Of a stretch of 64,000 bases of DNA, positions 24,258-42,826 are shown piece by piece. This DNA is from Granulicella mallensis MP5ACTX8 (GTDB lineage Bacteria; Acidobacteriota; Terriglobia; Terriglobales; Acidobacteriaceae): the NCBI RefSeq assembly GCF_000178955.2, contig NC_016631.1, positions 2,666,001 through 2,730,000 on the forward strand, read 5' to 3'. How positions within the stretch are numbered: position 1 is the first letter of the stretch; each line of letters opens with the position of its first letter. The translations under genes and the position numbers were made by a program. The notes beneath the pieces were generated by a model, which was given only the letters and a program-made list of their open reading frames with translations, did no database searches and was not told the DNA's origin.

Positions 24258-25058
24258 ATGCAGCGCAGATCAAATATCCTCTCACTACGAAACCCAGCCA
24301 TGTGGTTGTTCCTCTTGCTGCTCGTTTGCTCGACCGTCGTAAGAGCCGCTGTCCCTGGGCAGGGAACTCCGAAGTTCCGGGTCGTTGCTCTTGCCGAATC
24401 GGGCGGGATTCACCAGCCATTCGTCGACGCGGCGAAACTCTGGCTCAACAAGCTGGCATTCGAGAATAATTTCGCCGTCGATTACATTCAGAATACCGAT
24501 AAGATCGACGACGCCTTTCTCTCCCAATACCAGCTATTTATCCAGCTCAACTATCCACCCTATAACTGGACACCCACGGCCCAGGCTGCCTTCATAAAGT
24601 ACATCGAGGAGGGCAGAGGAGGGTGGATTGGATTTCATCATGCCACGCTGCTTGGAGAGTTTGATGGTTTCAAAATGTGGCCCTGGTTCTCCAACTTCAT
24701 GGGAGGTATTCGCTTTACGAACTACATCCCTACTTTCGCGGATGGAATGGTAACGGTGGAAGACACTACGCATCCGGCCATGCAGGGTGTTAAAACTCCA
24801 TTTCCTGTGAGCCAGGAGGAGTGGTACACGTGGGATAAATCTCCTCGCCCCAATGTTCATGTGCTGGCGAGCGTGGATGAGAAGACCTATACGCCTGATA
24901 CGAAGATCAAGATGGGAGATCACCCTGTCATCTGGACGAACGAACACTACAAGGCGCGCAATATTTATATCTTTATGGGACATCACCCAGATCTATTTCA
25001 AAATCCGGCTTTTACGACCATCTTTAGAAATTCTATTTTCTGGGCTGCTCATCAATAG
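24258..25058 (+). CDS. Exported ThuA-domain protein, second copy
   Basis: A 266-residue ThuA-family protein with an N-terminal signal/anchor (PAMWLFLLLLVCSTVVRAA). Motifs parallel the copy at 17203 but the sequence is clearly diverged: GRGGWIGFHHATLLGE, WPWFSNFMGGIRF, DTTHPAMQGVKTPF, EEWYTWDKSP, PVIWTNEHYKARNIYIFMGHH. A GAGGACGGA ribosome-binding region lies just before the ATG. Cotranscription with GH116 suggests the two act on the same exported glucoside. One idea is that ThuA handles an oxidised (3-keto) sugar, as discussed for trehalose in rhizobia, but no sugar 3-dehydrogenase is in this window. Confidence 0.85.
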   Translation: MQRRSNILSLRNPAMWLFLLLLVCSTVVRAAVPGQGTPKFRVVALAESGGIHQPFVDAAKLWLNKLAFENNFAVDYIQNTDKIDDAFLSQYQLFIQLNYPPYNWTPTAQAAFIKYIEEGRGGWIGFHHATLLGEFDGFKMWPWFSNFMGGIRFTNYIPTFADGMVTVEDTTHPAMQGVKTPFPVSQEEWYTWDKSPRPNVHVLASVDEKTYTPDTKIKMGDHPVIWTNEHYKARNIYIFMGHHPDLFQNPAFTTIFRNSIFWAAHQ

Positions 25059-25085: not shown

Positions 25086-27125
25086 TTATTGATTTACAGG
25101 TTCGGCTTCGATCAGTACGCGAACCGCTGGTGTGACCACAAGGAACAGCTCTGCATGGGGTGCGGCACTTTCATCCACCTTTGCAAGTTGTTCCTTGCGC
25201 TGTTCCGGTGTAACGGGATGCGCCGACTCAATAGAATCGAGTGCGGCTATTCCCAGAGCGCCCAGCACTGAAAGGTTTTGTGACAGCGGAGCGAGTGGTG
25301 CTCGCAACATCGAGGTAGCCAGGTAAGGTTCAAGAGCTGCATTGTTATCGCGCCATTGGATAAACCGCTTCCGCAGCTCCGGTCGAGCGGACGGATCGTG
25401 AACAGCACGCTGTGCCAGCGCATTGATCTCTCTCGCCTGGTCGCTCTCCGGTGAGACGGCGTCCACTAGATGATTCAGCGGCCTTTCCGCGTCGTACTTC
25501 TGCGTTCTTTCTCGGTGATATTCTTTGACCGGCTCGACGGCCCTCGCCAGCGTTTCCAGCAACTCCGGCGGCATATCGTCACCCTCAATGCGGTCCAGCA
25601 TACGGCTGCTGCTGGTTTGATGTTCCAGGCCGAGATATTCCAGGTTGCGGCTGAGAACAGCCAGGCGGCGATACATGGAGGGAATATCGGTCACCGATTC
25701 CGGAGACCATAGCCGCTCAGCGATGGCTCCGAGCCGAGGCCAAAGCCGGTTATCGAGGTTTTCCGGTGTGACGTACTCCGCCCATTGCGCGGCTTCTCCA
25801 CCAAGAATGTGCGACTTCTCCTCCGCGGTGAGGGCAGCGCTTTTGCCTGACAGAGGATCAACGGCGTAGTGCTGCGATGCGGGATACATCAGGTCGAGAT
25901 AGTAGCCTGCGGACAGTATCGTCTTGTATCCCATCCTCGCCGCATCTGCCAATGACTCTGCGCCGCGCCAGGATTGAATGAGAGAATTCTTCGGCAAATT
26001 GCCGTCCAGAATCTCGTCCCATCCTTCCATATCCTTGCCATGTTTATGAACGATCTGCTCCACGCGTTTTGTGAAGTAAGTCTGCAGGGCGTGATTGTCT
26101 TTGATCTTGTGTGTGCGCATCCATGCCTGGATGGTTGCATCCTTGTCCCAATACTTGCCATCCACTTCGTCGCCGCCGATATGAAAGTAACGGTCGGGGA
26201 AGAGAGCTTCCATCTCACCAAAGACCGTGTCCAGCAGGACGTAAGTAGCCTCCTGCGTGGGATCGAACGGCGGACGCAGTTTGTCCTGTTCCGAGCGAAC
26301 CAGTGCTTGAGGCGCGGGGCCAGAGGCCAACTTAGGGTAGGCAACCAGCCAGCTCACCGCATGACCGGGTACATCGAATTCTGGAACTACGCGTACACCA
26401 CGGTCGCGCGCATAGGCAATTAACTCGCGCATCTGATCCTGTGTATAGAAGAGGCCATCGGAGGCAAGCTCCGTCAACCTGGGGCGGCGTTTGCTTTCTA
26501 CTCGAAAGCCCTCATCGTCGGAGAGGTGCAGATGCAAAACGTTCAGCTTCACCGCAGCCATTCCATCGATGTTTCGCTCAAGGGCTTCGAACGGCATGAA
26601 GTGCCGCGATACGTCGATCATCAGACCGCGCCATGCAAAGCGAGGAGTGTCGTCAATGAGAACGTCAGGGAGAACCCAGCCCTGAGGGCTTGGCCTAACA
26701 AGCTGCAGCACGGTTTCAAGACCGTGCATGATTCCCAGGGGATTGGCAGCCGTCAATTCAATTCCTGTTTGGCTGACGGTTAAGTGGTAGCTTTCGTCCT
26801 CCGCCAATGCCTGAACATGAAGACCCGGACCTGCGCAGCGGATAACGAATCGCGGCCCCTCCGGGGCTCCGGAAAAGTGATGATCGAAAGGAACCCCGGT
26901 ACGCACAGAGAGGCTTCGCATGAACCGTGTCAGTGCGTGGTGAACTCGCTCATCTCCACCCGTGAGTTGGATCTGTGGTGTATGTTCCAGATTCAGAAAA
27001 CCTTCCTGCTGTGTCACGTGCGAAGGCCAGGGCATAAGATTTAGTTCGGCAGCCCCGCAGGGCAGTGCGGCACATAGCAAAAGGACAGCCGTCGTTAATC
27101 TATGAATGCCACCGCGTTGGCTCAA
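25086..27125 (-). CDS. Exported GH20 beta-N-acetylhexosaminidase
   Basis: A 679-residue GH20 enzyme that removes terminal GlcNAc/GalNAc from chitin fragments, peptidoglycan pieces or glycans. Signal peptide about 9-26 (LTTAVLLLCAALPCGAAE), N-terminal GH20b domain (about 30-160), then the TIM barrel beginning PRFAWRGLMIDVSRHFMP. The catalytic pair D319-E320 lies in HIGGDEVDGKYW; HLHLSDDEGFR and EFDVPGHA are also present. The start is a TTG at 27125, chosen because GAGG lies 8 nt upstream and no ATG gives a signal peptide. A C-terminal helical region of about 150 residues follows the barrel. Single gene; a terminator separates it from the redoxin gene upstream. Confidence 0.9.
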   Translation of the reverse strand: MSQRGGIHRLTTAVLLLCAALPCGAAELNLMPWPSHVTQQEGFLNLEHTPQIQLTGGDERVHHALTRFMRSLSVRTGVPFDHHFSGAPEGPRFVIRCAGPGLHVQALAEDESYHLTVSQTGIELTAANPLGIMHGLETVLQLVRPSPQGWVLPDVLIDDTPRFAWRGLMIDVSRHFMPFEALERNIDGMAAVKLNVLHLHLSDDEGFRVESKRRPRLTELASDGLFYTQDQMRELIAYARDRGVRVVPEFDVPGHAVSWLVAYPKLASGPAPQALVRSEQDKLRPPFDPTQEATYVLLDTVFGEMEALFPDRYFHIGGDEVDGKYWDKDATIQAWMRTHKIKDNHALQTYFTKRVEQIVHKHGKDMEGWDEILDGNLPKNSLIQSWRGAESLADAARMGYKTILSAGYYLDLMYPASQHYAVDPLSGKSAALTAEEKSHILGGEAAQWAEYVTPENLDNRLWPRLGAIAERLWSPESVTDIPSMYRRLAVLSRNLEYLGLEHQTSSSRMLDRIEGDDMPPELLETLARAVEPVKEYHRERTQKYDAERPLNHLVDAVSPESDQAREINALAQRAVHDPSARPELRKRFIQWRDNNAALEPYLATSMLRAPLAPLSQNLSVLGALGIAALDSIESAHPVTPEQRKEQLAKVDESAAPHAELFLVVTPAVRVLIEAEPVNQ

Positions 27126-27243: not shown

Positions 27244-28380
27244 TTACGGATTCTTCCAGTACTCATTGAAGCCACTATAGTCGGAAGGCATTGCCGCAAG
27301 AATCTTCCGGCGCAGCTCCAGCATGTCGACTGAGCCGAGCGAACTATAGAGAACCTTTCCATTGGGTCCGAGCAGTACCGTGTAGGGCACGGCAGACTGC
27401 CACTTTGGATCGAATGCCGCTTGCAGTGCTGCTGTATCGTCAGAGGCAAATAGGAGGTTGCGGCTGGTGGCATGTTTCTGCTGCAACAGCCGAAGAACCC
27501 CCGGCTTCTCATCCGGCATGTTCGCGGATACTGTGACCAGTTTGAAGCCGCGGTCGGTGTACATGCGGAAGGTATCCTGCAGGTCAGAGAACTCAGCCAC
27601 GCAGGAGCCGCACCAGGTGGCCCAGAAGCTGACCAGCGTGTAGTTATCACCCGCATTGGCGCGGAGCTTCTTTAAACCCTGAGCATCAATAGGTTCTACC
27701 GTGACAGGCTGTGCTTCCAGCTTCTGCTCGTAGGCTGTACGGAGCGGTTCCTTGTCCTGCCATTTCGTCGAGCAGCCGAAGACCCCGGTGTGAGTTACCG
27801 GGACAGGCTTATTGGCCAGCAACGCTTCAATCGCATAGCGTGCATCCTGTGTCTTCACCATCTCGATGCGATAGCTATTATCCATGCGGCCTTCGTAGCG
27901 CAGGTGACGCTCTTTATCGAAGATGAACACATGCGGCGTAGCCTGCGGGCCATAGGCTCGGGTTACAGACTGGGTTGCGCCGTCGTACAGGTAAGGGTAG
28001 TGAAGGTGCTTGTACTGCACGCGAGTCTTCATCTCGTCCAGGGTGTCGCCGATATCGGATGAATCGAGTTCTTCGGTGGTGGTTGCTTTTGGATCATTGC
28101 CCTGGATGGCAACGACCGCCACGCCACGTTTGCTGCCCTCTTCGTAGAGCTGTTCGATGCGGCGCTCATACATCTGCGCTATTGGGCAATGGTTGCAGGT
28201 GAAGACCACGACAAGGACAGGGCTGCTCGCGTAGTCGCTTAACTTATGGATCTTTCCGTCCACGCCCGGTAGTGCAAAGTTCGGGGCAGGCGAACCCAGA
28301 GCTAGGATGGGGTGTGAAGCCTGTCCGTGGAGAGCGAGCGACATGAGCGAGGTGAGGGCAAAGGTAAACAGCTTCCGCAT
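27244..28380 (-). CDS. Exported two-domain redoxin: AhpC/TSA-like plus TlpA-like thioredoxin
   Basis: A 378-residue protein with a signal peptide (LFTFALTSLMSLALHGQ). Domain 1 (about 25-190) is a peroxiredoxin/redoxin-like fold with C62NHC65P in place of the usual catalytic site, and ATPHVFIFD. Domain 2 (about 225-375) is TlpA/ResA-like with the redox motif W256-C257-G-S-C260 and VPYTVLLGPNGKVLY. A linker includes GCSTKW, frequent in the CNHCP-type redoxins. Likely a periplasmic thiol-disulfide protein. The fusion could pass electrons between its two cysteine pairs. GGGAG precedes the ATG. It is 37 nt downstream of the epimerase gene, so probably cotranscribed with it. Confidence 0.82.
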   Translation of the reverse strand: MRKLFTFALTSLMSLALHGQASHPILALGSPAPNFALPGVDGKIHKLSDYASSPVLVVVFTCNHCPIAQMYERRIEQLYEEGSKRGVAVVAIQGNDPKATTTEELDSSDIGDTLDEMKTRVQYKHLHYPYLYDGATQSVTRAYGPQATPHVFIFDKERHLRYEGRMDNSYRIEMVKTQDARYAIEALLANKPVPVTHTGVFGCSTKWQDKEPLRTAYEQKLEAQPVTVEPIDAQGLKKLRANAGDNYTLVSFWATWCGSCVAEFSDLQDTFRMYTDRGFKLVTVSANMPDEKPGVLRLLQQKHATSRNLLFASDDTAALQAAFDPKWQSAVPYTVLLGPNGKVLYSSLGSVDMLELRRKILAAMPSDYSGFNEYWKNP

Positions 28381-28417: not shown

Positions 28418-29221
28418 TTATGCGAGATTTCTCGCAAAGGTAATCTCCTGCACCATATCCCGATCGACGTCGCCTTCTTTCTCGTACTCGACGGCAATCA
28501 GCCCGAGAAACTTCTGGCGGTGCAGTTCGTGCATGACTTCAGGAATCTTTGCGGCTCCGGTCCCTAGCAGCACGTTTACTTCGCCGCCCTTTGTCTGGAC
28601 GTCTTTCAGGTGCACCATCCGCAGGCGTGGCGCCAGTTTACGGATGGCATCGGCTGGATCGTAGCCGCAGGAGGCGAAATGGCCTGTGTCCGCTGTCGCC
28701 CCCATGGTGTGGGAAAGTGTGGAAAGCGCGTTCAGAACGTCTTCGGGGCTCTCGTAGGCGAATTTGGTATTCGGAAAGAAATGGTTGTGGATCCCGAAGG
28801 TCAGCTTTTCCTGCGTCAGGCGCTGATCGATCCGGTTGAGAATACTCCCCGTTGCGTCGCCAGTGATATTGCTACAGCCCAGCAGCTTCGCGAAACGCAC
28901 TGCGTTTTCAACGTCCTGGTCATCTTTGAGGGTGGCGGCATAGTACGAGACGCAACGAATGCCGGCGCGATCCAGTTTCTCCCTTGTATCGCGGAACAAC
29001 TGATCCTGAGGGTGATGCATCAGCATGAACTCACCGCGAGACATCTCGATCTCGCGAATGTGAAGCGCGTTCAACTGAATCACCATGTCGTCTATCGAGA
29101 GGCTGTGATAGCTGTACGTGCCTACTCCAACATTGAGTTTGCTGAGAGCAAAGAGGGGTGTAGCAGCGCTGATCAGGCCGCTGGCTGCGGCAAGCTTCAC
29201 AAAACCTCTGCGCGTCGTCAT
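28418..29221 (-). CDS. Tat-exported sugar isomerase/epimerase-like TIM-barrel protein
   Basis: A 267-residue xylose-isomerase-like TIM barrel (AP endonuclease 2 superfamily). The N-terminus MTTRRGFVKLAAASGLISAA is a twin-arginine signal, so it probably acts folded in the periplasm. Barrel motifs: VSYYAATLKDD, GIHNHFFP, MGATADTGHFASCG, RMVHLKDVQTK, IAVEYEKEGD; metal-binding H/E/D/H positions are plausible. Cytosolic relatives epimerise or isomerise sugars. Exported relatives occur in glycan loci of Bacteroidota and Acidobacteriota, where some have been linked to steps on 3-keto sugars; that link is a recollection, not shown here. It is downstream of the ROK regulator and upstream of the redoxin. 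Confidence 0.8.
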   Translation of the reverse strand: MTTRRGFVKLAAASGLISAATPLFALSKLNVGVGTYSYHSLSIDDMVIQLNALHIREIEMSRGEFMLMHHPQDQLFRDTREKLDRAGIRCVSYYAATLKDDQDVENAVRFAKLLGCSNITGDATGSILNRIDQRLTQEKLTFGIHNHFFPNTKFAYESPEDVLNALSTLSHTMGATADTGHFASCGYDPADAIRKLAPRLRMVHLKDVQTKGGEVNVLLGTGAAKIPEVMHELHRQKFLGLIAVEYEKEGDVDRDMVQEITFARNLA

Positions 29222-29343: not shown

Positions 29344-30546
29344 TCAGAGGGCGGGCTGGGGAAGCAGAACGCCGGGGATCGCATCGAGAGCCAGGGAGAT
29401 CGCACCCCACAGTACGGCACGATTGCCGGGGGCGCTGGAGCCTACCTTGGTTACGGCAAACTCGTCTCCCTCCAGTTGTTTCCGCACCAAATCGATCAGG
29501 GCAGGGTGGCTGCCGACTTCTCCGCCGAGGAGAATCAGGCCGGGGTTCAGGATGAGGGACAGATCCACAATGATGTCCGCCACGATCTCCGCCCGGTGGA
29601 GAACGATCTTTTCCGCGCGGGGGTCTCCGGCCTGCGCCAGATTCAGGATTCCCACCGCATCGATCTCTCTTCCGGTTCGGGCTGCCTTGCCGGTTTCCTC
29701 CTGCCAGCTCTTCAGAATCCCGGAACTGGTGAGTACCATTTCGAGTTCGCCGAACTCATGGATGGTTGGTTGTCTGCGCGAGATGGAAGGGAGACGAAGA
29801 TAGGCGATCTCTCCGGCAGACCATTGCGAGCCGTGATGAATTCTGCCGCCCAGGAAGATCCCCGCACCAACATTTGTACCGATGTTGATGAAGACAAAGT
29901 TCTTTTCGGCCTGCGCCGTTCCGCAGTAATGCTCTCCCAGCGCCGCCAGGTTCATGTCGTTTTCGACGATTACCAGGCAGTTAGCGATCTTGGTGAGCAT
30001 GACGCGCAAGGGCACGGAGCGCCAGCCTTCCAGTGTGCTGATGGACAGGACGCTGCCTTCCTCTACATTGGTAATCGCCGGCACGCCGACGACCAGCGCC
30101 AGCAATTGTTCGCGCGTCTTCTTCTGTTTCTTCAGCAGAGCCTTCAACTCGTCTCCGATGTAGCCGCAGACGGCCTCAGGAGTCGTTTTTTGTTTTAGGA
30201 GAGAGAATTTGCTTGTGTCGAGTTCGTTTCCGTTCAGGTCCGTCAGGAGAAGCGAGATACTCTCAGCGGAGATCTCAACGGCAAGCAGGCAACCCCGTTC
30301 CGCCTTGAAACGGATCATATCCGGCGGCCGGCCTCCACTGGATTCTCCCTCGCCCAGCGGCTCGACCAGGCCTTCGGCCAGCAGATCCTTCACTACATTG
30401 GTGATCGTCGGAGCGCTCAGGTTGGAAGCGCGAACCAGATCCGCCCGGGAACATGAGCCGCATTCGCGCAGAAGCTTCAGGATGCTGTGCGCATTCGCGT
30501 GACGCAGGACGGAGGGTCGGCCGATTGGAATAGACTTTTTCTTCAC
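29344..30546 (-). CDS. ROK-family transcriptional regulator
   Basis: A 400-residue NagC/XylR-type protein: N-terminal winged helix (about 15-75, SILKLLRECGSCSRADLVRA and APTITNVVKDLLAEGLV, then GGRPPDM) joined to a ROK sugar-sensing domain. The kinase-like phosphate motif is degraded (AVEISAESISLLLTDLNG; Asp replaced by Glu, Gly by Ser). The usual cysteine-rich zinc motif after AGEIAYLRLP is absent, although ENDMNLAALGE retains the Asp (D197). So it should sense, not phosphorylate, a sugar. GTG start at 30546. It is divergent from the SIS-MFS-ROK-FAH-APC-amidohydrolase operon and is the natural candidate to control it through the 313-nt gap. Confidence 0.85.
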   Translation of the reverse strand: MKKKSIPIGRPSVLRHANAHSILKLLRECGSCSRADLVRASNLSAPTITNVVKDLLAEGLVEPLGEGESSGGRPPDMIRFKAERGCLLAVEISAESISLLLTDLNGNELDTSKFSLLKQKTTPEAVCGYIGDELKALLKKQKKTREQLLALVVGVPAITNVEEGSVLSISTLEGWRSVPLRVMLTKIANCLVIVENDMNLAALGEHYCGTAQAEKNFVFINIGTNVGAGIFLGGRIHHGSQWSAGEIAYLRLPSISRRQPTIHEFGELEMVLTSSGILKSWQEETGKAARTGREIDAVGILNLAQAGDPRAEKIVLHRAEIVADIIVDLSLILNPGLILLGGEVGSHPALIDLVRKQLEGDEFAVTKVGSSAPGNRAVLWGAISLALDAIPGVLLPQPAL

Positions 30547-30859
30547 TTTGTTCCGGAGAATATACAGTTCCCAGAGTTACTATATGCCAGCGATGAGGCA
30601 CAGTCATCTGGATTGTGTGACCCGTACCGCTCTCATAAACCGTCTCATGCAAAGAAGTTCTTGCTTTCTATCTTCCGAGGAAGGATACTAAGTAAACATT
30701 AGGAAGTATATGGCTAGAGGCTTGGGGATGAGGAACGCTGACGCTTTGTTCATCCCGCTCAAGGCGGTTTGCGGTGCTGGCCCAGGATTATGCCAGAGGC
30801 TGCGTACCCCGTAGAGAAGCAAGCGCGGTTGCTGCGAATTTGCCGGATTGAGGAGTGGA
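30547..30859. promoter_or_regulatory. Divergent control region of the ROK regulator and catabolic operon
   Basis: No gene is seen. A candidate plus-strand promoter is TTGCTT (30661-30666), 17 nt, GATACT (30684-30689). The -10 end overlaps CTAAGTAAACATTAG (30688-30702), an imperfect palindrome similar in style to NagC/XylR-type AT-rich operators. TATCTTCC/GGAAGGATA (30669-30687) forms a second small inverted repeat and GGAAG recurs at 30702-30706. A repressor bound here would block the operon; this is inference from position. Confidence 0.4.
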
Positions 30860-31963
30860 ATGGGAGAAGTGAATCAACAAGCGCCACGCTGGATCTCCGG
30901 GATCGAGCCCTCGAAGGAACTGCTCGCGGCCAATGGGACGCAGATCCTCGAGATCGAGTGCCGGGAGCAGCCGGATAGGCTTCGCGACCTGATTCGGGCA
31001 TATCGCAGTGATCCGGCCCTTCGCGCCGAGTTGAAGAAGTTCCGCGATCTTGCAGCAAAGAAAGGGCCAATCCTCTTCATCGGGATGGGCGCCTCCTTCT
31101 GCTCTTCCATCAGCGGCTCGGTACTCCTTCAGACGCACGGACGGTCCTCGTATTCCGTCGACGCGGGCGAGTGGCTGCACTATGCGCGGCCGACCTGGGA
31201 CGATGCGGCATTGTCCGTGCTGCTTACTACCTCCGGTGAGAGCGCTGAGCTGGTAGAGCTCTTCAAACTGGGCGGCGACAGGGAACTGGGACTCATCTGC
31301 AACAACCCCGCGAGCACCTGCTGGAGGCTGGCGGAAAACAAGCTTCCGATCCTGGCCGGTCCAGAGTACGGCAATGCCACCAAGACCTATACCAACGCCA
31401 CAGCTGTTTCCATCATCCTCGCGTCCGAGATGCTGGGCCGTCCCTGGGAGGAAGAGGCCGAGCTCGTGGCAGAGATCTTTGCTGCAAACCTGGACCCCGT
31501 CTTCGCGCTGCGCGGTGAACTCGAAGCGTTCTGCCGGGGGGCAGCCAACACGGAGATTATTGGTCGCGGAGCGGCTTACGGTGGCGCTATTATGAGCGCG
31601 CTCTGCATTCGCGAGATGAGCGGACACAGGGCGGCGGCGCATACCGGTGCAGGATTTCGGCACGGTCCCAATCTGGATGTGGATGCCTCCCACGTGGCAA
31701 TCATCTTCGCTCTTGGGCGAGTTGCGGCGCTCGGGATCAAACTCGCAGAGGAGTGCAATCGTCGCGGCGGTAAGGTCGTCCTGGTGAGTACGGAGAACCA
31801 CGAGGCGACGGACAAGTTATTTCCGGTCCGGATCGATGCGGTTCCGGAGCCCTGGGAGGGGATCACCTCGCTGCTGGTACCGCAGGCGTTGACCCTCGGC
31901 ATGGTGGAGAGAACAGGATGCCGGCTCCCGCCACGGTTTCAATACGGCGTGATGGAACAGTAG
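30860..31963 (+). CDS. Double-SIS-domain sugar-phosphate enzyme (isomerase/deaminase/deglycase-like)
   Basis: A 367-residue cytosolic protein with two SIS domains, like the isomerase half of GlmS, AgaS and the FrlB/FraB deglycases. First domain: ILFIGMGASFCSSISGSVLL, LLTTSGESAELVELF, GPEYGNATKTYTNATAV. Second domain: IIGRGAAYGGAIMSALCIREM and GAGFRHGPNLDV (the residual HGP motif), KVVLVSTENHEATD. Such enzymes bind phosphorylated amino-sugars or fructosamines. Substrates could be an amino-sugar phosphate (deamination/isomerisation) or an Amadori compound (deglycation). ATG at 30860 with GAGGAG 4 nt upstream is preferred over an in-frame TTG at 30848. First gene of a six-gene operon; the MFS gene follows after 2 nt. 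Confidence 0.8.
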   Translation: MGEVNQQAPRWISGIEPSKELLAANGTQILEIECREQPDRLRDLIRAYRSDPALRAELKKFRDLAAKKGPILFIGMGASFCSSISGSVLLQTHGRSSYSVDAGEWLHYARPTWDDAALSVLLTTSGESAELVELFKLGGDRELGLICNNPASTCWRLAENKLPILAGPEYGNATKTYTNATAVSIILASEMLGRPWEEEAELVAEIFAANLDPVFALRGELEAFCRGAANTEIIGRGAAYGGAIMSALCIREMSGHRAAAHTGAGFRHGPNLDVDASHVAIIFALGRVAALGIKLAEECNRRGGKVVLVSTENHEATDKLFPVRIDAVPEPWEGITSLLVPQALTLGMVERTGCRLPPRFQYGVMEQ

Positions 31964-31965
31964 AT

Positions 31966-33372
31966 ATGAGCACCTTCGTCAGTCGAGAGGAAATCTTGCC
32001 CAATACGGAAACCGTTCTACAAACCTACGTCCGCCGAAACTTTATCTGGAAGGTGTCCTTCATCGCGGGCCTGGGGGGCATTCTCTACGGCTTCGACATG
32101 GGTATTATCGCGGCCGCCTTGATCTTTGTACGCGAATCCTTTTCGCTTTCCACGCGCATGGAAGAGGTGGTGGTGAGCATTGTGCTGGTCGGCGCGATGT
32201 TGGGCGCGATTGCGGGAGGCAGCATCGCGGACCGAATCGGCAGGCGTGCCACGCTGCTCTGGGGCGGAGGCATCTTCCTCATCGCCTCACTCCTTGCCCC
32301 CGCATCGCCGAATGCGGCCACGCTGATCGTGGCCCGTGCGCTGCTTGGAATCGCGATAGGCTTTACGTCCGTCACGGCGCCTGTCTATATCTCCGAGCTG
32401 GCGCCTCCGCAGTCGCGCGGAAGACTCATCGGGCTGTACCAGTTCGCGCTCACGGTGGGGATCGCGCTGGCGGACTTGGTGGGGTATTGGTTTGCCGGAC
32501 AACATGCGTGGCGGCTGATGTTTGGACTGGGAGCCGCGCCAGCAGCCCTGTTTGTCGTTCTGCTCCTCACGCTTCCGGAAAGTCCACGCTGGCTTTTTGC
32601 GCAGAATCGGGTTGCCGAGGCGCAGTCTGTGTTGAGCTCCTATACCGATGAAGCTGGCGCCAGATTGTTGATCGAAGATATTCATTCTGCCCTGGATCTC
32701 AAGGTGGAAAAGCGCTGGAGCGCGCTCTGGAGTCCTGCCGTTCGGCTCTCCCTCCTGATTGCGGTGGGTTTCACCGTTCTGCAGCAGGTTACCGGCATCA
32801 ACACGATCATCTATTACGGTCCGCGAATCTTTTCTCTAGCGGGCATCACCTCGAACAGGAGTGCCATCTTCGCGACACTGCTGGTTGCTGTGACAAATGT
32901 GCTGGCCACGATCATTGCACTGGTGCTGGTGGACCGGGTGGGCCGCAAACCACTGCTCTATGCGGGCATCAGTGGGATGACGGCCTCGCTATTTCTGTTG
33001 GCTTATTCGTTTCACAATCCTGCGGCGTTCGGAGCTGCACCCGGCATCATTGCGACGATCTGCCTGATGGTCTACATCACCTGTTTTGCCTTCAGCATGG
33101 GGCCTATCGCCTGGATTCTGGTCTCGGAGGTCTTCCCCCTGCAGTTGCGCGGCCGTGGTGTTGCTGCAGCCTCGTTGGGCTCCGGAGCCGCTAATTTCTT
33201 AGTCTCGATCACCTTTCTGTCGCTCATCAAGGTCGCGGGCAATTCAGTCACCTTCATCATTTACGGAGCATTTTGTATCGTTACGCTGCTTTTTGTGCGC
33301 TTCATCGTCCCGGAGACAAAAGGACGTGAACTAGAGAGCATCAGTGCCGGACACGGTGCAAGTGTGTCCTAA
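31966..33372 (+). CDS. MFS sugar-porter-family transporter
   Basis: A 468-residue inner-membrane transporter with 12 predicted helices, of the sugar porter family (XylE/GalP/AraE type). Signatures: ADRIGRRATLLWGG after helix 2, PVYISELAPPQSRGRL, LPESPRWL, QQVTGINTIIYYGPRIF, VDRVGRKPLL and the closing PETKGRELE. These proteins import a monosaccharide with protons. ATG at 31966 starts 2 nt after the SIS stop; an in-frame upstream ATG at 31918 overlaps the SIS gene and is less likely. Tight coupling with the SIS and kinase genes means that it likely brings in the sugar or sugar conjugate they process. Confidence 0.88.
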   Translation: MSTFVSREEILPNTETVLQTYVRRNFIWKVSFIAGLGGILYGFDMGIIAAALIFVRESFSLSTRMEEVVVSIVLVGAMLGAIAGGSIADRIGRRATLLWGGGIFLIASLLAPASPNAATLIVARALLGIAIGFTSVTAPVYISELAPPQSRGRLIGLYQFALTVGIALADLVGYWFAGQHAWRLMFGLGAAPAALFVVLLLTLPESPRWLFAQNRVAEAQSVLSSYTDEAGARLLIEDIHSALDLKVEKRWSALWSPAVRLSLLIAVGFTVLQQVTGINTIIYYGPRIFSLAGITSNRSAIFATLLVAVTNVLATIIALVLVDRVGRKPLLYAGISGMTASLFLLAYSFHNPAAFGAAPGIIATICLMVYITCFAFSMGPIAWILVSEVFPLQLRGRGVAAASLGSGAANFLVSITFLSLIKVAGNSVTFIIYGAFCIVTLLFVRFIVPETKGRELESISAGHGASVS

Positions 33373-33396
33373 GGGAACACAAGAGAAACCATCATC

Positions 33397-34434
33397 ATGC
33401 AAACCCGCTTACACGAGGCAATTTCAGGAATGACACAACGGCAGACTCACAGCCCCATCGCTGTCCATAAGAACTCTGTGGCAACAGAGGACACTGGCTA
33501 TGTTGCCGGCATAGATCTTGGAGCGACGAATTTACGCTTGGCGCTTGCTGATATGTCCGGCGCCGTCCTGGCGAGGTGGGATTCCTCTACCGCAGGCGTT
33601 CGTGGTGCAGAGGCGGTGATCTCGCTCATCAAAGAAGGCGTGGAGAGTCTCCTGCAGAAGGTTTCCGCGCCGCGCGAGGCTTTGAAGGCCGTTGCAGCCG
33701 GCGCTCCTGGTATTACCGACGTCGATGCGGGAATCGTGATCGCAACGTCGTATCTCATGGGCTGGCGAGACGTTCCTCTGCGCGCTCTGCTTGAGGACGC
33801 CTTCAACACGCCGGCCACAGTGGATAACGATGTGAACCTTGCGGCCATCGGTGAAAGCTGGACGGGTGCGGCAAAGGGCGTACGCGATTTCGTGTTCGTT
33901 GCGATTGGCACCGGTGTCGGCGCAAGCCTCATTTTGAACGGCAGTCCCTATCGCGGAAGCGCCTGGGCTGCGGGCGAAATCGGCTACATGCTTGTGCCTG
34001 GCACCTCGGGCATCCCGGGGGATCGTGGTGAACCCGGAGCTCTCGAGAGCATGATCGGCGGCGAAGGCATCAAGGCAGAATGGCAGAATCTTTGGAGTGC
34101 GGAGAGCACGGCACTACCGAAGGGGCTGACTGCGACCCAGATCTTCGATCATGCGCTTGCCGGAGATGCGCTGGCGCAGACCCTTCTGCAGCAAACGGCT
34201 CGCATCCTGGCCTATGCCATCTACAACATGACCCTGGTGTTGAACTGCCCGCTCTTCGTGTTGGGGGGAGGCGTCGGTATGCACCCAGCACTCTGCAGCG
34301 AGACGCAAAAGATGCTGGAGAAACTAAACATGAGGACCCAGCCAGAACTGGCGCACAGTGCTTTGGGAACGGACGCGCAGTTGATGGGAGCACTTCGTTT
34401 GGCGCTCGATACGGCAGGCTCTCTTCGCAGATAA
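33397..34434 (+). CDS. ROK-family sugar kinase
   Basis: A 345-residue ROK protein without DNA-binding domain, so probably a kinase. Phosphate-binding motif GIDLGATNLRLALADMSG (about 38-55) is intact, catalytic Asp D145 lies in VDNDVNLAAIGESW, adenosine-site glycine cluster VLGGGVGMHP near 285-295. It lacks the cysteine-rich zinc motif of glucokinase/NagK: after AGEIGYMLVP comes GTSGIPGDRGEPGALESM, retaining the spacing but no cysteines. Predicted to phosphorylate the hexose, amino sugar or sugar-amine imported by the neighbouring transporters, supplying the SIS enzyme. The start may be the ATG at 33397 or 33430. It shares the zinc-motif loss with the ROK regulator at 29344. Confidence 0.82.
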   Translation: MQTRLHEAISGMTQRQTHSPIAVHKNSVATEDTGYVAGIDLGATNLRLALADMSGAVLARWDSSTAGVRGAEAVISLIKEGVESLLQKVSAPREALKAVAAGAPGITDVDAGIVIATSYLMGWRDVPLRALLEDAFNTPATVDNDVNLAAIGESWTGAAKGVRDFVFVAIGTGVGASLILNGSPYRGSAWAAGEIGYMLVPGTSGIPGDRGEPGALESMIGGEGIKAEWQNLWSAESTALPKGLTATQIFDHALAGDALAQTLLQQTARILAYAIYNMTLVLNCPLFVLGGGVGMHPALCSETQKMLEKLNMRTQPELAHSALGTDAQLMGALRLALDTAGSLRR

Positions 34435-34489
34435 CGGAACAGGTAGCGAATCATTTCAAACTACGGCTGAACAATGAAAGGCGATGCTC

Positions 34490-35347
34490 ATGCGATTTGC
34501 TGTATTCAGTAGTGAAGGACGCGAAGGGCTTGCGGTAGCAGCTCCGGGTGGGGAGTTCCATGGTCTGTTCAGCGGAGATGCAGGGTATCCCGGATCGCTG
34601 GATAGTCTCGTACGGAAGGGCCGCAGTGCGCTCGATGCGGCAGCGGTGGTGTTGCAGAAGGGATTTGCCGTCGACCTTAACGAGGTCACGCTGCACCCGC
34701 CGCTATCGGCTCCCGGAAAGATCATCTGTGTGGGGCTCAACTACGTCGATCATTCGATTGAGAGCGGCTTTGTCGTGCCGGACTATCCCACGATCTTCAC
34801 GCGTTTTACCTCCAGTTTGCTTGGTGCCGGTGCGCCCATTATTCGTCCCACGGTTTCGATCCAGTTGGATTACGAAGGCGAGATGGTCGCCGTTATCGGC
34901 GTTGCCGGACGACACATTGCGGAGCAGGACGCGCTTGACCATGTCATTGGCTATTCGATCTTCAACGACGCCTCTGTTCGTGATTATCAGAAGAAGTCTC
35001 CGCAATGGACTATCGGAAAGAACTTCGACAATACCGGGGCGTTTGGTCCGTACCTGGTAACTGCCGATGAGGTCTCGCCCGGCGGGAAAGGATTGCACAT
35101 CCAGACCCGGCTGAACGGCACCGTGGTTCAGGATGCTTCGACGGATGACATGGTATTCAGCGTGGCGCGGCTGATCTCGATCTTGAGTGAAGCAATCACG
35201 CTTTCGCCTGGAGATATCTTCGTGACCGGTACACCGGCAGGTGTTGGCATGGCACGAAAGCCGCCGCTGTTTATGAAGCACGGCGATAACTGCGAAGTCG
35301 AAATAGAAGGAATCGGTATCTTGCGCAATACAGTGCAGGACGAATAA
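34490..35347 (+). CDS. Fumarylacetoacetate hydrolase family protein
   Basis: A 285-residue FAH-superfamily enzyme. These Mg-dependent enzymes hydrolyse, hydrate or decarboxylate beta-diketo or 2-keto acids. Metal ligands are visible as E129-x-E131 (LDYEGEMVAVIG) and D160 (IFNDASVRDYQ); the catalytic loop motif ICVGLNYVDHSIESG and the C-terminal GDIFVTGTPAGVGMARKPP are typical of acylpyruvase/2,4-diketo-3-deoxy-sugar-acid hydrolase branches. The ATG at 34490 has AAAGG 8 nt upstream; an ATG at 34484 is too close to it. In this operon it probably processes a keto-deoxy acid from sugar or amino-acid breakdown, but the exact substrate cannot be told. Confidence 0.82.
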   Translation: MRFAVFSSEGREGLAVAAPGGEFHGLFSGDAGYPGSLDSLVRKGRSALDAAAVVLQKGFAVDLNEVTLHPPLSAPGKIICVGLNYVDHSIESGFVVPDYPTIFTRFTSSLLGAGAPIIRPTVSIQLDYEGEMVAVIGVAGRHIAEQDALDHVIGYSIFNDASVRDYQKKSPQWTIGKNFDNTGAFGPYLVTADEVSPGGKGLHIQTRLNGTVVQDASTDDMVFSVARLISILSEAITLSPGDIFVTGTPAGVGMARKPPLFMKHGDNCEVEIEGIGILRNTVQDE

Positions 35348-35385
35348 GCGCTGCAGATCTGTCAACCACCTAGTCAAGGGGCACT

Positions 35386-36816
35386 ATGTCGGTTAGCGAA
35401 ACAGTATCCACCCCACAAGCCGGCGAGACACGACTCAGGCGCAATGCGCTCTCACTGAGTCACGTCGTGGCGACTACTCTCGCCGGTATTGCCCCGGCGA
35501 TGAGTTTCTTCTTCGGCTTTGCGGTGATTGTGCAAGGGGCCGGACTTGCGGCGCCCCTGACCATCCTCACCGCGATGGTCGCGATTCTGTTTCTGACGAA
35601 TACCATCGCGGAGTTTTCCCGCTTCACGCCATCTGCGGGGTCTTTCGTCACCTTTACCGGCAAGGCCTTCGGGCCTTCTGTGGGTGCTGCCGTCTCGGTG
35701 TTCGTCATCTTCGGCTATATCGTAGCTGCGTCGACGATTGTCGCCATTGCGGGCGTCTGGATCTCCGAGACACTGAGAATCTTTCTTGGCCTATCGGTGA
35801 ATTGGGCTCTGCTCATGGTGCTGCTGGCGGCTGGAACCGGCTGGCTGGTGATGCGAGGCGTGGGTCTCTCGACGCGCTGGTCCGGCGTATTCTTTTACTT
35901 CGAAGCTGGGTTGCTGGTTCTGGGAAGCATCCTGATGCTGACCGCTCATCCTCACTTCCTGACTCTTGCGCCCTTCAAGTTTTCGAGTCTGACCGGAGGT
36001 CTTACAGGCCTGGGTGTAGGATTTCCGCTGGCTATTTATCTCTTCATCGGTTGGGAGAACTCTGCCACACTCGCGGAAGAGACGGAGAATCCACGGCAAA
36101 ATATTCCACGTGCCCTGATTACCGGAACGCTGACGATCGGCATCTTTTATATCTTTCTCGCCTATGCAACGGCGGCCGGTTTCAAGATGGATGCGCATGC
36201 GCTTGGAGCATCGCGACTCCCTTTTATCGATGGATTAAAAGCCTCCGCGCCTGCCTTGCTGGCAGTAGCGTATCTGGCTGGGGTTACCAGCATTCTGGGC
36301 TCTCTGATCGGTCTTGTGAACTCTCAGGCGCGCATTCTTTTCAACTCCGGACGTGAAGGTTTGCTGCCGGAGTTTCTTGGCAAGATTCATCCGCGGCATC
36401 AGACGCCACACAGCGCGATGTGGGTGTTTCTCTTCATTGCTGTTGCACTGATCCTCGGGTTCTGCTTGCTCGGCGGAATCGCGCCCATGGACTATTTCGG
36501 CTTTGCCGGAACGCTCGGTACTGTCCCGATCATTCTCACTTACATGCTCACCAATCTCGCCCTGCCGGTTTACGTCGTCCGGTATCAACGACACGAACTC
36601 AACATCGTTCGCCATGTCGTGATGCCGATCGCCGGCACTCTGGTTATGTTTTTCCCTTTGTGGGGTTTCGTCCAGCCGGGCCAATCCTGGCCCTTCAATG
36701 TATTGCCCTGGGTCGTATTAGTGGTTCTCGTTCTATCCGTCCTCTATGGCACTGTGATCGCGCGATTGTCTCCCGGCCTCGCGCGGCGTATCGGTGCCTA
36801 CGTAGCAGATCAGTAA
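35386..36816 (+). CDS. APC-superfamily amino-acid permease
   Basis: A 476-residue inner-membrane permease with about 12 helices of the amino acid-polyamine-organocation type. Helix 1 region: ALSLSHVVATTLAGIAPAMS; helix 6 and following: LFIGWENSATLAEETENPRQ, the canonical APC stretch; then ARILFNSGREGLLPEFLGKI. Related permeases import amino acids, and FrlA of E. coli, which takes up fructoselysine, is also an APC protein. An amino-acid permease inside a sugar kinase/SIS operon is the main clue that the substrate combines sugar and amino acid. The start follows AAGGGG. The amidohydrolase starts 31 nt downstream. Confidence 0.87.
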   Translation: MSVSETVSTPQAGETRLRRNALSLSHVVATTLAGIAPAMSFFFGFAVIVQGAGLAAPLTILTAMVAILFLTNTIAEFSRFTPSAGSFVTFTGKAFGPSVGAAVSVFVIFGYIVAASTIVAIAGVWISETLRIFLGLSVNWALLMVLLAAGTGWLVMRGVGLSTRWSGVFFYFEAGLLVLGSILMLTAHPHFLTLAPFKFSSLTGGLTGLGVGFPLAIYLFIGWENSATLAEETENPRQNIPRALITGTLTIGIFYIFLAYATAAGFKMDAHALGASRLPFIDGLKASAPALLAVAYLAGVTSILGSLIGLVNSQARILFNSGREGLLPEFLGKIHPRHQTPHSAMWVFLFIAVALILGFCLLGGIAPMDYFGFAGTLGTVPIILTYMLTNLALPVYVVRYQRHELNIVRHVVMPIAGTLVMFFPLWGFVQPGQSWPFNVLPWVVLVVLVLSVLYGTVIARLSPGLARRIGAYVADQ

Positions 36817-36847
36817 AGCCAACTATTCAATATCGAAGGAGTACACC

Positions 36848-38128
36848 ATGATGAATCGAGTTCTTTTTCGCGGTGCCAGTGTATGGGACGGTAGCGGTGC
36901 TCCGGCCTTTCTGGCGGACGTGCTTGTCGAAGGCTCCAGAATCAAGACAATCGCTCGCGCGCCGGACCGGCTCGCCACTGAGGGCGCTACGGTGATCGAA
37001 GCCCGTGGCAGAACGCTGATGCCAGGCCTTGTCGAAGGGCATGCTCACATCTCGTTCGGCGGCGCTGTGAACGATTCCGATCTGGGGAACATTCCTCCCG
37101 AAGAGCACATGCTGCTGACGGCGCGGAATGCGAAGACCTTGCTGGACCACGGCTTTACCAGCGCCTATAGCGCGGCTACCTCAAAGCTGAGGCTCGATAT
37201 CGCCATCCGCAATGCAGTGAATGCGGGAGAGTTTCCTGGGCCTCGCATCCGCGCGGGCAGCCCGGAGATCACGGTCACCGGCGGCCTGGGCGACGAGCGC
37301 AAGGCGCATATGTATTACGAGAGCTTTGGCATGATTGCCGATGGTGTCGAGGAGATCAAGAAGGTAGTCCGGCTGTGTTGTCGTGAAGGCGTAGACAACA
37401 TCAAGGTGAACATCTCGGGAGACGATCTCAGTCCGGCGGCTCATGGTGGCCTGACCGTGATGCGCGAGGACGAGATCCAGATGGCTGTCAGTGTTGCGCG
37501 AGACTTCAACAAGAAAGTGAATTGCCATGCGCGCTCGGCGGAGTCCGTAAAGCGAGCCGTTCGTTGCGGTGTGGATGTGATCTATCACTGCGAGTCTGCC
37601 GATGAGGAAGCGATCGACATGCTGGAGTCTGCGAAGGATCGGATCTTTGTAGGACCGGCCATCGGTATTATCTACAGCACACTCTACGAGGGAGAAAAGT
37701 TTGGGTTCTATCGTGATTCCGAAGTGGGGCGGCAGATGCAGCGTGTGATCGACACGACGGCGGAGGTCTATACGGAGCTGCGTAAGAGGGGCGTGCGCAT
37801 TCTTATTGGTGGCGACTATGGATTTGCCCAGTCGCCACAGGGCGATAATGCGCGCGACCTCAAGCATTTCGTCGATCTGCTCGGCTTCTCTCCGAACGAG
37901 GCGCTGCAGTGCGGTACGCGCATCGGTGGACAGGTGATGGGCCTGGGGAAGGAACTGGGCGAGGTGAAGGAAGGCTATATCGCCGATCTGCTGCTGCTCG
38001 ATGGCGATCCGCTCAAGGATATCGACCTGGTAGTGCATACGAAGAATCTGCACGTGATTATGAAGGAAGGCGAGCTCTATAAGGATGTTTCCGCTACGGC
38101 TATGCTTGAGCATACGGTGGTGGGATAG
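36848..38128 (+). CDS. Prolidase/imidazolonepropionase-like amidohydrolase
   Basis: A 426-residue cytosolic metallo-hydrolase of the amidohydrolase superfamily. Binuclear site residues are all visible: H65xH67 (EGHAHISF), carboxylated-lysine candidate K186 (DNIKVNISG), H227 (NCHARS), H247 (IYHCES) and D323 (GGDYGFAQ). The arrangement matches the subgroup containing Xaa-Pro/Xaa-Arg dipeptidases and other amide hydrolases. It ends with the typical GYIADLLLLDGDP beta-sandwich return. As the last gene of the operon it may open a peptide, N-acyl or lactam bond in the imported compound. GGAG lies in a good position before the tandem ATG at 36848/36851. Confidence 0.83.
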   Translation: MMNRVLFRGASVWDGSGAPAFLADVLVEGSRIKTIARAPDRLATEGATVIEARGRTLMPGLVEGHAHISFGGAVNDSDLGNIPPEEHMLLTARNAKTLLDHGFTSAYSAATSKLRLDIAIRNAVNAGEFPGPRIRAGSPEITVTGGLGDERKAHMYYESFGMIADGVEEIKKVVRLCCREGVDNIKVNISGDDLSPAAHGGLTVMREDEIQMAVSVARDFNKKVNCHARSAESVKRAVRCGVDVIYHCESADEEAIDMLESAKDRIFVGPAIGIIYSTLYEGEKFGFYRDSEVGRQMQRVIDTTAEVYTELRKRGVRILIGGDYGFAQSPQGDNARDLKHFVDLLGFSPNEALQCGTRIGGQVMGLGKELGEVKEGYIADLLLLDGDPLKDIDLVVHTKNLHVIMKEGELYKDVSATAMLEHTVVG

Positions 38129-40818: not shown

Positions 40819-40849
40819 GACCGCGCCTCCAGTTGATGGAGCCCGGAGA

Positions 40850-41242: not shown

Positions 41243-41283
41243 TGCTATAGTCCTCTCAAACTGGATGATCGAATTCTATTGAA

Positions 41284-42738: not shown

Positions 42739-42826
42739 CTTGTTGTTCCTAGCATAATAGGCTGAATACATTTGGTGATGTGGGTTATCGCATTCTTATT
42801 TCTGCGACCCACCGGAGGTTCTTTCC

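What the first reader, a model, noticed from the sequence alone, without database searches (positions are those of the whole stretch)
29344..38128. Possible new conjugate-sugar catabolic operon: ROK regulator / SIS / MFS / ROK kinase / FAH / APC / amidohydrolase
A sugar transporter, sugar kinase and double-SIS sugar-phosphate enzyme are cotranscribed with an amino-acid permease and an amidohydrolase. The known precedent with SIS enzyme, kinase and APC permease is Amadori-compound use (frl/fra), but the kinase here is ROK, not PfkB, and FAH and amidohydrolase genes are extra. This suggests an unassigned sugar-amine, N-acyl-amino-sugar or glycosyl-amino-acid pathway.
Basis: partly seen in the sequence, partly recalled or inferred. 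Interest (0 to 1): 0.6.

Follow-up and report, generated by a model that had tools for sequence, protein, structure and literature searches.

The report
Amino-sugar regulon with attached gene cassette
The seven genes are real, but they look like two systems run together: a sugar-import, kinase and amino-sugar enzyme unit with its own small regulon, and a separate three-gene cassette that was attached to it in this soil bacterium.

Summary
The seven genes are present as described, in Granulicella mallensis. The single 'conjugate-sugar operon' reading is partly supported. In 32 related loci, SIS, MFS and ROK kinase are always together; the amidohydrolase cassette adjoins them in 5. In two other genomes the cassette stands alone beside a divergent GntR-type gene. 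The SIS protein falls outside the Amadori deglycase (FrlB/FraB) clade, in a clade without a curated family; one sister protein follows nagA-like and ROK kinase genes. Its modelled fold is nearest GlmS and other amino-sugar SIS enzymes, though some NagB-II entries rank no higher than the deglycases. I infer an amino-sugar-6-phosphate deaminase or isomerase. New: a conserved operator-like site between ROK regulator and SIS, with one further copy in the 6.24-Mb genome, between an outer-membrane receptor and a GH116 gene. In relatives it also precedes copper amine oxidase, ThuA and TlpA genes, suggesting a local ROK regulon. Substrate, regulation and cotranscription are inferred, not shown.

The parts
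29344..30546 (-). ROK-family regulator (winged HTH + ROK domain)
   Evidence: PF00480 1.3e-38, HTH_24/MarR; divergent from SIS; near SIS in 22 of 32 loci
30684..30709 (+). operator-like site 1, GATACTAAGTAAACATTAGGAAGTAT, between ROK regulator and SIS
   Evidence: phylogenetic footprint; one of 2 matches in the whole genome; window chance expectation 0.01
30860..31963 (+). double-SIS protein, inferred amino-sugar-6-phosphate deaminase/isomerase
   Evidence: PF01380; separate clade; model pLDDT 91 and fold ranking
31966..33372 (+). MFS sugar porter
   Evidence: TIGR00879 373 bits, cut-off 237.8; with SIS in 32 of 32 loci
33397..34434 (+). ROK-domain sugar kinase lacking the usual His/Cys zinc motif
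   Evidence: PF00480 5.3e-51; GEIGYM in place of GEIGH...CxCG; 32 of 32 loci
34484..35347 (+). FAH-family hydrolase (attached cassette)
   Evidence: PF01557 5.2e-68; 4 of 32 loci
35386..36816 (+). APC amino-acid permease (attached cassette)
   Evidence: PF13520/PF00324; 5 of 32 loci, one of them a remnant of 13 percent length
36848..38128 (+). amidohydrolase of the Xaa-Pro/Xaa-Arg peptidase-like group (attached cassette)
   Evidence: PF01979; NF051886 214.9 bits, cut-off 500; nearest solved 9kov, 2qs8, 3mkv, 3mtw
21581..21606 (-). operator-like site 2, between outer-membrane receptor and GH116
18036..21503 (-). TonB-receptor-like outer-membrane protein, proposed regulon member
   Evidence: PF25183 3.7e-224; divergent from GH116 with site 2 between
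21787..24222 (+). GH116 glycosidase, proposed regulon member
   Evidence: PF04685/PF12215; near SIS in 11 of 32 loci
24258..25058 (+). ThuA-domain protein with a signal-like N-terminus (by eye)
   Evidence: PF06283 9.1e-43
25086..27125 (-). GH20 beta-N-acetylhexosaminidase
   Evidence: PF00728 6.4e-97; near SIS in 8 of 32 loci
27244..28380 (-). TlpA/AhpC-like thioredoxin protein
   Evidence: PF00578 1e-31; near SIS in 25 of 32 loci
28418..29221 (-). xylose-isomerase-like TIM barrel protein with a Tat-like N-terminus (by eye)
   Evidence: PF01261 1.4e-14; near SIS in 12 of 32 loci

Best explanation
Two units read as one operon. Unit 1 is a ROK-controlled amino-sugar scavenging system. An outer-membrane receptor and secreted glycosidases (GH116, GH20) supply a sugar. 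The MFS porter imports it, the ROK kinase phosphorylates it at C6, and the SIS protein converts the amino-sugar-6-phosphate to a ketose-6-phosphate plus ammonia. The ROK repressor binds a shared site upstream of SIS and of the receptor/GH116 pair and is released by the sugar or its phosphate. Unit 2, FAH-APC-amidohydrolase, imports and hydrolyses an amino-acid-type amide or dipeptide. In two other genomes it stands alone beside a GntR-type gene. In G. mallensis it has come to lie behind the kinase and so under the same promoter. Shown: gene content, conservation, the site pattern, the SIS clade, co-occurrence. Inferred: substrates, reactions, binding of the regulator, secretion, cotranscription.
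For: SIS, MFS and kinase together in 32 of 32 distinct loci against FAH 4, APC 5, amidohydrolase 5. Unlinked cassettes in G188 and G169 have a divergent GntR/FCD gene, and none of 5 unlinked or contig-cut amidohydrolase loci has the operator-like site at 10 bits or more. SIS tree: 17 query rows form one clade (100/100) inside a 27-row clade (100/97) apart from FrlB/FraB, AgaS, GlmD and GlmS/NagB-II-like rows. In one of three sister loci read, SIS follows a NagA-like gene (TIGR00221 195.9 bits, cut-off 225.65) and a ROK kinase. Catalytic-type Glu and His are kept, and the GlmS C-terminal Lys is not. Fold ranking, best entry of each: GlmS 38.4, AgaS-like 35.4, GlmD 35.0, GlcN6P deaminase 7kqa 34.6, 1j5x 32.4, NagB-II 31.9, then 2a3n 28.5, 3eua 27.2, FrlB 26.4, FraB 26.2. 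GH20 near the regulator. G. mallensis uses N-acetylglucosamine and is N-acetyl-beta-glucosaminidase positive (PMC3910553 section 5). Operator-like site: 30 sites of >=20 bits in 645 kb, 0 in 5 shuffled copies; 2 in the genome, 0 for the reversed control.
Against: The SIS protein scores far below every curated amino-sugar model (NagB-II 25.8 of 430, AgaS 14.7 of 529). Its nearest outside group in the tree is FrlB/FraB, weakly (89/43), and two of three sister proteins tested give weak FrlB matches. Two further entries of the NagB-II enzyme rank at Z 28.2 and 27.9, level with the deglycases. The genome has two AgaS-like proteins, a NagB-like protein and a GlmS-like SIS protein elsewhere, so plain GlcN6P deamination would be redundant. 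No NagA match lies in the window. The amidohydrolase occurs only with this SIS (7 of 7; p 2.2e-8, and 0.0015 among genomes of 6 Mb or more), which argues for some tie between the units. The site-regulator pairing is by position, not binding data, and 16 of 32 loci lack a site of >=20 bits beside SIS or the amine oxidase.
Confidence: 0.5

Rival explanations
1. One pathway for a sugar-amine or sugar-amide conjugate: SIS splits or deaminates the phosphorylated conjugate, and exchangeable modules handle the amine part (copper amine oxidase in some species, FAH-APC-amidohydrolase in others).
For: Amidohydrolase only in SIS genomes, 7 of 7. Strong copper amine oxidase matches in 15 of 200 genomes, 9 of them among the 19 with SIS (p 2.9e-7). 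One oxidase clade of 13 rows (SH-aLRT 94, quick tree of 23 rows) holds only SIS-linked rows and rows of SIS genomes. Oxidase directly upstream of SIS in 5 loci and behind the same operator-like site in 4 of 10 oxidase loci. The two modules overlap in 1 of 19 SIS genomes. Adjacency of the cassette needs 3 changes on the core tree.
Against: SIS is not in the deglycase clade. Co-occurrence tests ignore relatedness, and SIS genomes are large (5.65 against 4.28 Mb mean). 17 of 32 SIS loci have neither module near (some are cut by contig ends). 6 of 15 oxidase genomes lack SIS, and the oxidase of G070, a SIS genome, lies in the other clade. The oxidase looks secreted while SIS is not, so they need not act on one molecule.
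Confidence: 0.27
2. Amadori-compound (fructosyl-amino acid) use as in frl/fra, with a ROK kinase in place of the PfkB kinase.
For: SIS + kinase + APC permease in one operon, as in E. coli frlA-frlB-frlD; catalytic-type Glu and His shared with FraB/FrlB; weak (89/43) sister placing to FrlB/FraB.
Against: Outside the FrlB/FraB clade; FrlB model no match at E<=1; deglycase entries rank below GlmS, AgaS, GlmD and two GlcN6P deaminases by fold; APC near SIS in 5 of 32 loci only; none of the window genes tested is a PfkB kinase.
Confidence: 0.07
3. Plain GlcNAc/GlcN catabolism (nag-type) with NagA encoded elsewhere; SIS simply replaces NagB, and the other genes are unrelated.
For: ROK regulator, ROK kinase, SIS and GH20 are the usual nag parts (recalled). 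NagA is over the cut-off in 163 of 200 family genomes, and the own genome's best match (8.5e-85) is as strong as listed rows over it; NagB-I is over the cut-off in 1 of 200. The species uses GlcNAc.
Against: SIS orthologs are in only 19 of 200 family genomes while NagA is far more general, so most of the family probably uses another deaminase. The kinase lacks the ROK zinc motif. In relatives the amine oxidase has the same operator-like site.
Confidence: 0.16

Closest known systems
nag-type GlcNAc catabolic loci with NagB-II and ROK regulator/kinase (Shewanella nag, recalled; NF046059)
   Same: ROK regulator, ROK kinase, MFS transporter, double-SIS enzyme, GH20 nearby
   Different: SIS far below the NagB-II model (25.8 of 430 bits) and in another clade than NagB-II-like rows; no nagA match in the window; MFS is a sugar porter; kinase without zinc motif
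frl operon of E. coli (fructoselysine) and fra locus of Salmonella (recalled)
   Same: SIS enzyme, kinase and APC permease in one operon
   Different: ROK not PfkB kinase; SIS outside the clade; permease not conserved with SIS
AgaS (E. coli agaS)
   Same: GF[RK]HGP motif round the catalytic-type His; among the closest fold groups
   Different: 14.7 of 529 bits to TIGR02815; separate branch; the genome has AgaS-like proteins elsewhere
Copper amine oxidases, AGAO-like (PF01179) - in relatives only
   Same: catalytic domain and NYD cofactor motif (motif meaning recalled)
   Different: linked to a sugar SIS/ROK cluster; no match in G. mallensis

Membership tests
Amadori deglycase (FrlB/FraB/GfrF) | falls in the FrlB/FraB sequence clade | tested here: not met
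   four deglycase-type rows a 100/99 clade, query rows a separate 100/100 clade; GfrF itself was not in the tree
Amadori deglycase (FrlB/FraB/GfrF) | matches curated FrlB model NF008481 | tested here: not met
   not among matches at E<=1 for the window protein
Amadori deglycase (FrlB/FraB/GfrF) | catalytic-type Glu and His of the second SIS domain | tested here: met
   alignment; shared by the other groups too, so not decisive
Amadori deglycase (FrlB/FraB/GfrF) | PfkB-type kinase partner | tested here: not met
   partner kinase is ROK
Amadori deglycase (FrlB/FraB/GfrF) | cleaves fructosyl-amine-6-phosphate | not testable with these tools
   needs assay
GlcN6P deaminase NagB-II (NF046059) | score over curated cut-off 430 | tested here: not met
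   25.8 bits
AgaS family (TIGR02815) | score over curated cut-off 529.2 | tested here: not met
   14.7 bits
GlmS | glutaminase domain and C-terminal isomerase Lys | tested here: not met
   371 aa with only SIS matched; Lys absent
Double-SIS amino-sugar-phosphate enzymes in the wide sense | fold of GlmS isomerase domain/GlcN6P deaminases | tested here: met
   pLDDT 91, best Z 38.4 to GlmS-type; fold alone does not exclude deglycases (Z 28.5-25.6)
Double-SIS amino-sugar-phosphate enzymes in the wide sense | acts on a 2-amino-sugar-6-phosphate | not testable with these tools
   needs assay; context only
ROK kinase | ROK domain with phosphate-binding motifs | tested here: met
   PF00480 5.3e-51; DLGATN, GTGVGAS, GGGVG seen (motifs recalled)
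ROK kinase | zinc motif GHx..CxCGxxGC (recalled) | tested here: not met
   GE[IV]GY[ML], no Cys motif, in 30 of 32; for L079 and L084 the script printed another stretch
ROK repressor regulon | shared operator upstream of regulator and targets | tested here: met
   by sequence pattern; found near 20 of 32 loci's genes at >=20 bits
ROK repressor regulon | regulator binds the site | not testable with these tools
   needs gel shift
Xaa-Pro dipeptidase (NF051886) | score over cut-off 500 | tested here: not met
   214.9 bits

The most novel reading that the evidence does not exclude
A new kind of sugar-amine utilisation regulon in Acidobacteriaceae. An unnamed SIS clade with a zinc-less ROK kinase deaminates or splits a phosphorylated amine-bearing sugar. 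One ROK operator couples it to a secreted copper amine oxidase in some species, while an amidohydrolase cassette takes the place of the oxidase in others, each module disposing of a different amine or amide partner of the sugar.
Probability: 0.22. Interest if true: 0.7.

Novelty: new variant of a known kind. Interest (0 to 1): 0.45.

Why it matters
It points to an uncharacterised SIS enzyme clade, its fixed partners (MFS, ROK kinase) and a candidate regulator-site pair with only two places in a complete genome, so substrate and regulon can be tested directly in a culturable soil bacterium. The tie between a sugar SIS pathway and a copper amine oxidase was not found in the paper searches made and would link amine oxidation to amino-sugar use in soils. 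It also corrects a misleading operon: the APC/FAH/amidohydrolase genes alone should not be used to assign the SIS substrate.

Tried and rejected
Rejected: Amadori reading. Rejected: SIS as a member of the curated NagB-II or AgaS families. Rejected: a fixed seven-gene pathway. Rejected: the amidohydrolase as a NagA equivalent: it matches TIGR00221 at only 23.6 bits and the genome has other NagA matches.

Led nowhere: the amidohydrolase outside the family (at E<=1e-80, 1 of 396 phylum genomes, its own), so no outside context for its substrate. Solved relatives of FAH and amidohydrolase are too mixed to name a substrate. PMC12051030 was searched for FraB catalytic residues and gave none (passages only); the role of FraB Glu214 is recalled, and one search shows only that an E214A mutant was solved. 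That 2a3n is GfrF is recalled; 3fkj has no proven function in the calls. Papers on FraB, ThuA, ROK/NagB-II and amine oxidase with amino sugars were seen as listings and abstract starts only. PMC3910553 was read in passages and section 5.

Dropped before counts: of 26 family genomes, the 7 with matches of 27-30% identity were not counted as orthologs (19 left). Of 20 copper amine oxidase genomes, 5 weak ones were left out in the strict test; with them p is 7.7e-6. The oxidase tree took 23 of 25 rows, leaving out L042 and L105 (450 residues or fewer). Two NagB-II-like rows with the wrong ORF (L136, L139) were left out of the SIS tree, and a third (L142) was not read; the five NagB-II-like rows used are all below the curated cut-off (0 of 199 genomes reach it), so no certified NagB-II is in the tree. 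L087 and L088 were not counted among the 32 loci. Several of the 32 loci are cut by contig ends, so absences are lower bounds. The Fisher tests take no account of relatedness. The two G. mallensis strains and pairs such as L082/L083 and L085/L086 are close to each other. 11 sites built the site profile; their leave-one-out scores are 23.2-43.4. The oxidase and core trees are 'quick' trees without bootstrap. Signal-like N-termini were judged by eye.
Full report
WHAT IS THERE. The window lies at 2666001-2730000 of a 6,237,577-base single-contig genome. That size is the one given for Granulicella mallensis MP5ACTX8 in Table 3 of PMC3910553, and strain X5P3 of that species carries the same locus at 97% SIS identity. 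All seven genes are at the stated coordinates with the stated families. Upstream on the other strand lie a TIM-barrel protein, a TlpA-like protein and a GH20 hexosaminidase. Further up are ThuA and GH116 genes and an outer-membrane receptor.

NEIGHBOURHOOD. SIS orthologs (64-91% identity outside the window genome) are in 19 of 200 family genomes, own genome included. Seven more genomes have matches of 27-30% only. I compared 32 distinct loci (window, L061-L086, L042, L043, L044, L048, L050). SIS, MFS and ROK kinase are present in 32 of 32; TlpA in 25; ROK regulator in 22; the window-type ThuA in 13; the TIM-barrel protein in 12; GH116 in 11; copper amine oxidase in 10; GH20 in 8; amidohydrolase and APC in 5; FAH in 4. 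Six further neighbours tested by Pfam are also ThuA proteins, so ThuA is more general than 13. The five loci with the amidohydrolase are the window, X5P3, Silvibacterium bohemicum (opposite strand) and two metagenome-assembled genomes (L076, L077). In L077 the order is the same as in the window; in L076 FAH is gone and APC is a remnant. Counted on a tree of the joined core proteins, adjacency of the amidohydrolase needs 3 changes, adjacency of the amine oxidase 7, nearness of GH20 2.

THE CASSETTE IS SEPARABLE. The amidohydrolase is found in 7 of 200 family genomes at E<=1e-60 and in 1 of 396 phylum genomes, its own, at E<=1e-80. In G188 and G169 the whole FAH-APC-amidohydrolase cassette stands alone, beside a divergent GntR/FCD gene. 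In G119 FAH is a remnant. In G040 the amidohydrolase stands without FAH or APC in the 20 kb read. G099 is cut by contig ends. None of these five loci has the operator-like site described below at 10 bits or more.

YET IT CO-OCCURS. All 7 genomes with the amidohydrolase are among the 19 with SIS (Fisher p 2.2e-8). Among the 21 genomes of at least 6 Mb, all 6 with the amidohydrolase are among the 9 with SIS (p 0.0015). Relatedness was not modelled.

THE SIS PROTEIN. It scores 92.6 bits to the GlmS model (cut-off 418), 25.8 to NagB-II (430), 18.3 to GlmD (580) and 14.7 to AgaS (529), and has no FrlB match at E<=1. Of three sister-clade proteins tested, all score higher to NagB-II (53.6-97.8 bits) than to FrlB (no match, 19.9 and 38.2 bits). 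In a 42-row tree the 17 query rows form a 100/100 clade within a 100/97 clade of 27 rows. That larger clade holds three sister groups without a characterised member that I know of: two Acidobacteriaceae groups and two Verrucomicrobiota metagenome proteins. Outside are the FrlB/FraB group (100/99), AgaS with GlmD, and GlmS with NagB-II-like proteins; the FrlB/FraB group is the nearest of these, with weak support (89/43). Long branches are present, so deep joins are unsure, and no NagB-II over the curated cut-off was available. The Glu and His at the catalytic places are kept, and the GlmS C-terminal Lys is not (the roles of these residues are recalled). One sister protein lies behind a NagA-like gene (195.9 bits to TIGR00221, cut-off 225.65) and a ROK kinase (L154). 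In two further loci of that group no NagA was found, one of them on a contig that ends just beyond the kinase; the other instead has a weak match to glycoside 3-dehydrogenase (148 of 750 bits). An AlphaFold2 model (pLDDT 91) was ranked by VIA-align 2. Best entries: GlmS-type 38.4, AgaS-like 35.4, GlmD 35.0, Stenotrophomonas GlcN6P deaminase 34.6, Thermotoga GlcN6P deaminase 32.4, NagB-II 31.9, then 2a3n (GfrF by recall) 28.5, 3fkj 28.3, Bacillus FrlB-type 27.2, FrlB 26.4, FraB 26.2. Two other entries of the same NagB-II are at 28.2 and 27.9, level with the deglycases, so the gap is clear for GlmS, AgaS, GlmD and the two deaminases but not for NagB-II. A shared fold shows no function, but the order is against an Amadori deglycase. 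The same genome has two AgaS-like proteins, a NagB-like protein and a GlmS-like SIS protein elsewhere, so this SIS is an extra, probably specialised enzyme.

A LOCAL REGULON. Aligning the regulator-SIS spacers of 12 loci showed one conserved 26-base stretch. A profile from 11 of these sites finds 30 sites of 20 bits or more in the 32 loci (645 kb) and none in five shuffled copies. They lie between regulator and SIS in 12 loci; upstream of the copper amine oxidase in L064, L072, L074 and L075; between receptor and GH116 in window, L061, L062, L067, L071 and L080; between ThuA and the receptor in L044; between regulator and ThuA in L085 and L086; and near ThuA or TlpA genes in L075, L081 and L048. 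Twelve loci have no such site, L076 and L077 with the cassette among them. In the whole G. mallensis genome the pattern with up to 3 mismatches occurs twice, at 30684-30709 and 21581-21606 of the window, against 0 for the reversed pattern. I take the neighbouring ROK protein as the binder; this is inference.

COPPER AMINE OXIDASE IN RELATIVES. Of the SIS neighbours tested, those of L064, L066, L074 and L078 are copper amine oxidases (others were GH116, ThuA and a SpoIIE-type protein). Ten of 32 loci have one; in L064, L069, L070, L072 and L075 it is directly upstream of SIS on the same strand. Many rows show signal-like N-termini by eye, and the NYD motif is present. Strong matches are in 15 of 200 genomes, 9 of which have SIS (p 2.9e-7); 6 do not. 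In a quick tree of 23 oxidases the 13-row clade (SH-aLRT 94) that holds all 9 linked rows otherwise contains only rows from G130, G160, G072 and G137, all SIS genomes; the sister clade of 6 rows has five from genomes without SIS and one from G070, which has SIS. G. mallensis itself has no match. No paper in the searched library holds the terms together, and the three holding 'copper amine oxidase' and 'Acidobacteria' look like community studies by title.

THE KINASE. It has the ROK phosphate motifs but GEIGYM in place of the His and Cys zinc motif. This holds in 30 of 32 orthologs; for the other two the script printed another stretch. The zinc motif itself is recalled; E. coli NagC in the same call shows it.

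MOST LIKELY WORKING. Glycosidases outside the cytoplasm release an amino sugar or a related sugar, MFS imports it, the kinase makes the 6-phosphate, SIS yields a ketose phosphate and ammonia, and ROK senses the sugar. GlcNAc use and N-acetyl-beta-glucosaminidase activity of the species (PMC3910553) fit. The same section reports no hydrolysis of chitin or chitosan, which suggests smaller or other glycans. The cassette adds an amino-acid-type amide activity. Confidence 0.5; the main rival is a sugar-amine conjugate pathway with exchangeable amine modules (0.27).

VERDICT. Observation confirmed; interpretation partly supported; new variant of a known kind (amino-sugar catabolic regulon) with an unnamed SIS clade and an unexpected amine oxidase partner in relatives.

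Noticed in passing
window 39469-44107: GntP-family permease, RidA, D-aminoacylase-like amidohydrolase and D-serine-dehydratase-like protein: looks like a D-amino-acid/N-acyl-D-amino-acid use cluster next to the cassette. Found also in X5P3 and in no other of the 32 loci as far as they reach.
   Followed up: partly
L064, L069, L070, L072, L075 (upstream of SIS); L066, L074, L078, L042, L050 (beyond SIS, opposite strand): Copper amine oxidase, apparently secreted, tied to the SIS core in relatives of G. mallensis.
   Followed up: yes
window 33397-34434 and orthologs: ROK kinase without the usual zinc-binding His/Cys motif; the ROK domains of the 5 regulators printed lack it too.
   Followed up: partly
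L148 8705-9910, L149 1794-2975 and 16482-18724 (own genome 1.11-1.14 Mb): Two AgaS-like proteins, one beside an FrlD-like (PfkB) kinase, and further on an APC-like permease beside a NagB-like protein.
   Followed up: no
L155 11476-13083: Protein with a weak match to glycoside 3-dehydrogenase (BT_2158 family) directly upstream of a ROK kinase-SIS pair of the sister clade.
   Followed up: no
L040 1837-2904: GH18 gene divergent from the FAH-APC-amidohydrolase cassette in Silvibacterium bohemicum.
   Followed up: no
window 38358-39461: Protein with a proline-rich repeated N-terminus and no Pfam match, between the cassette and the D-amino-acid cluster.
   Followed up: no
family genomes: Only 1 of 200 family genomes has a NagB over the curated cut-off while 163 have NagA over theirs: most of the family may use another GlcN6P deaminase.
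   Followed up: partly
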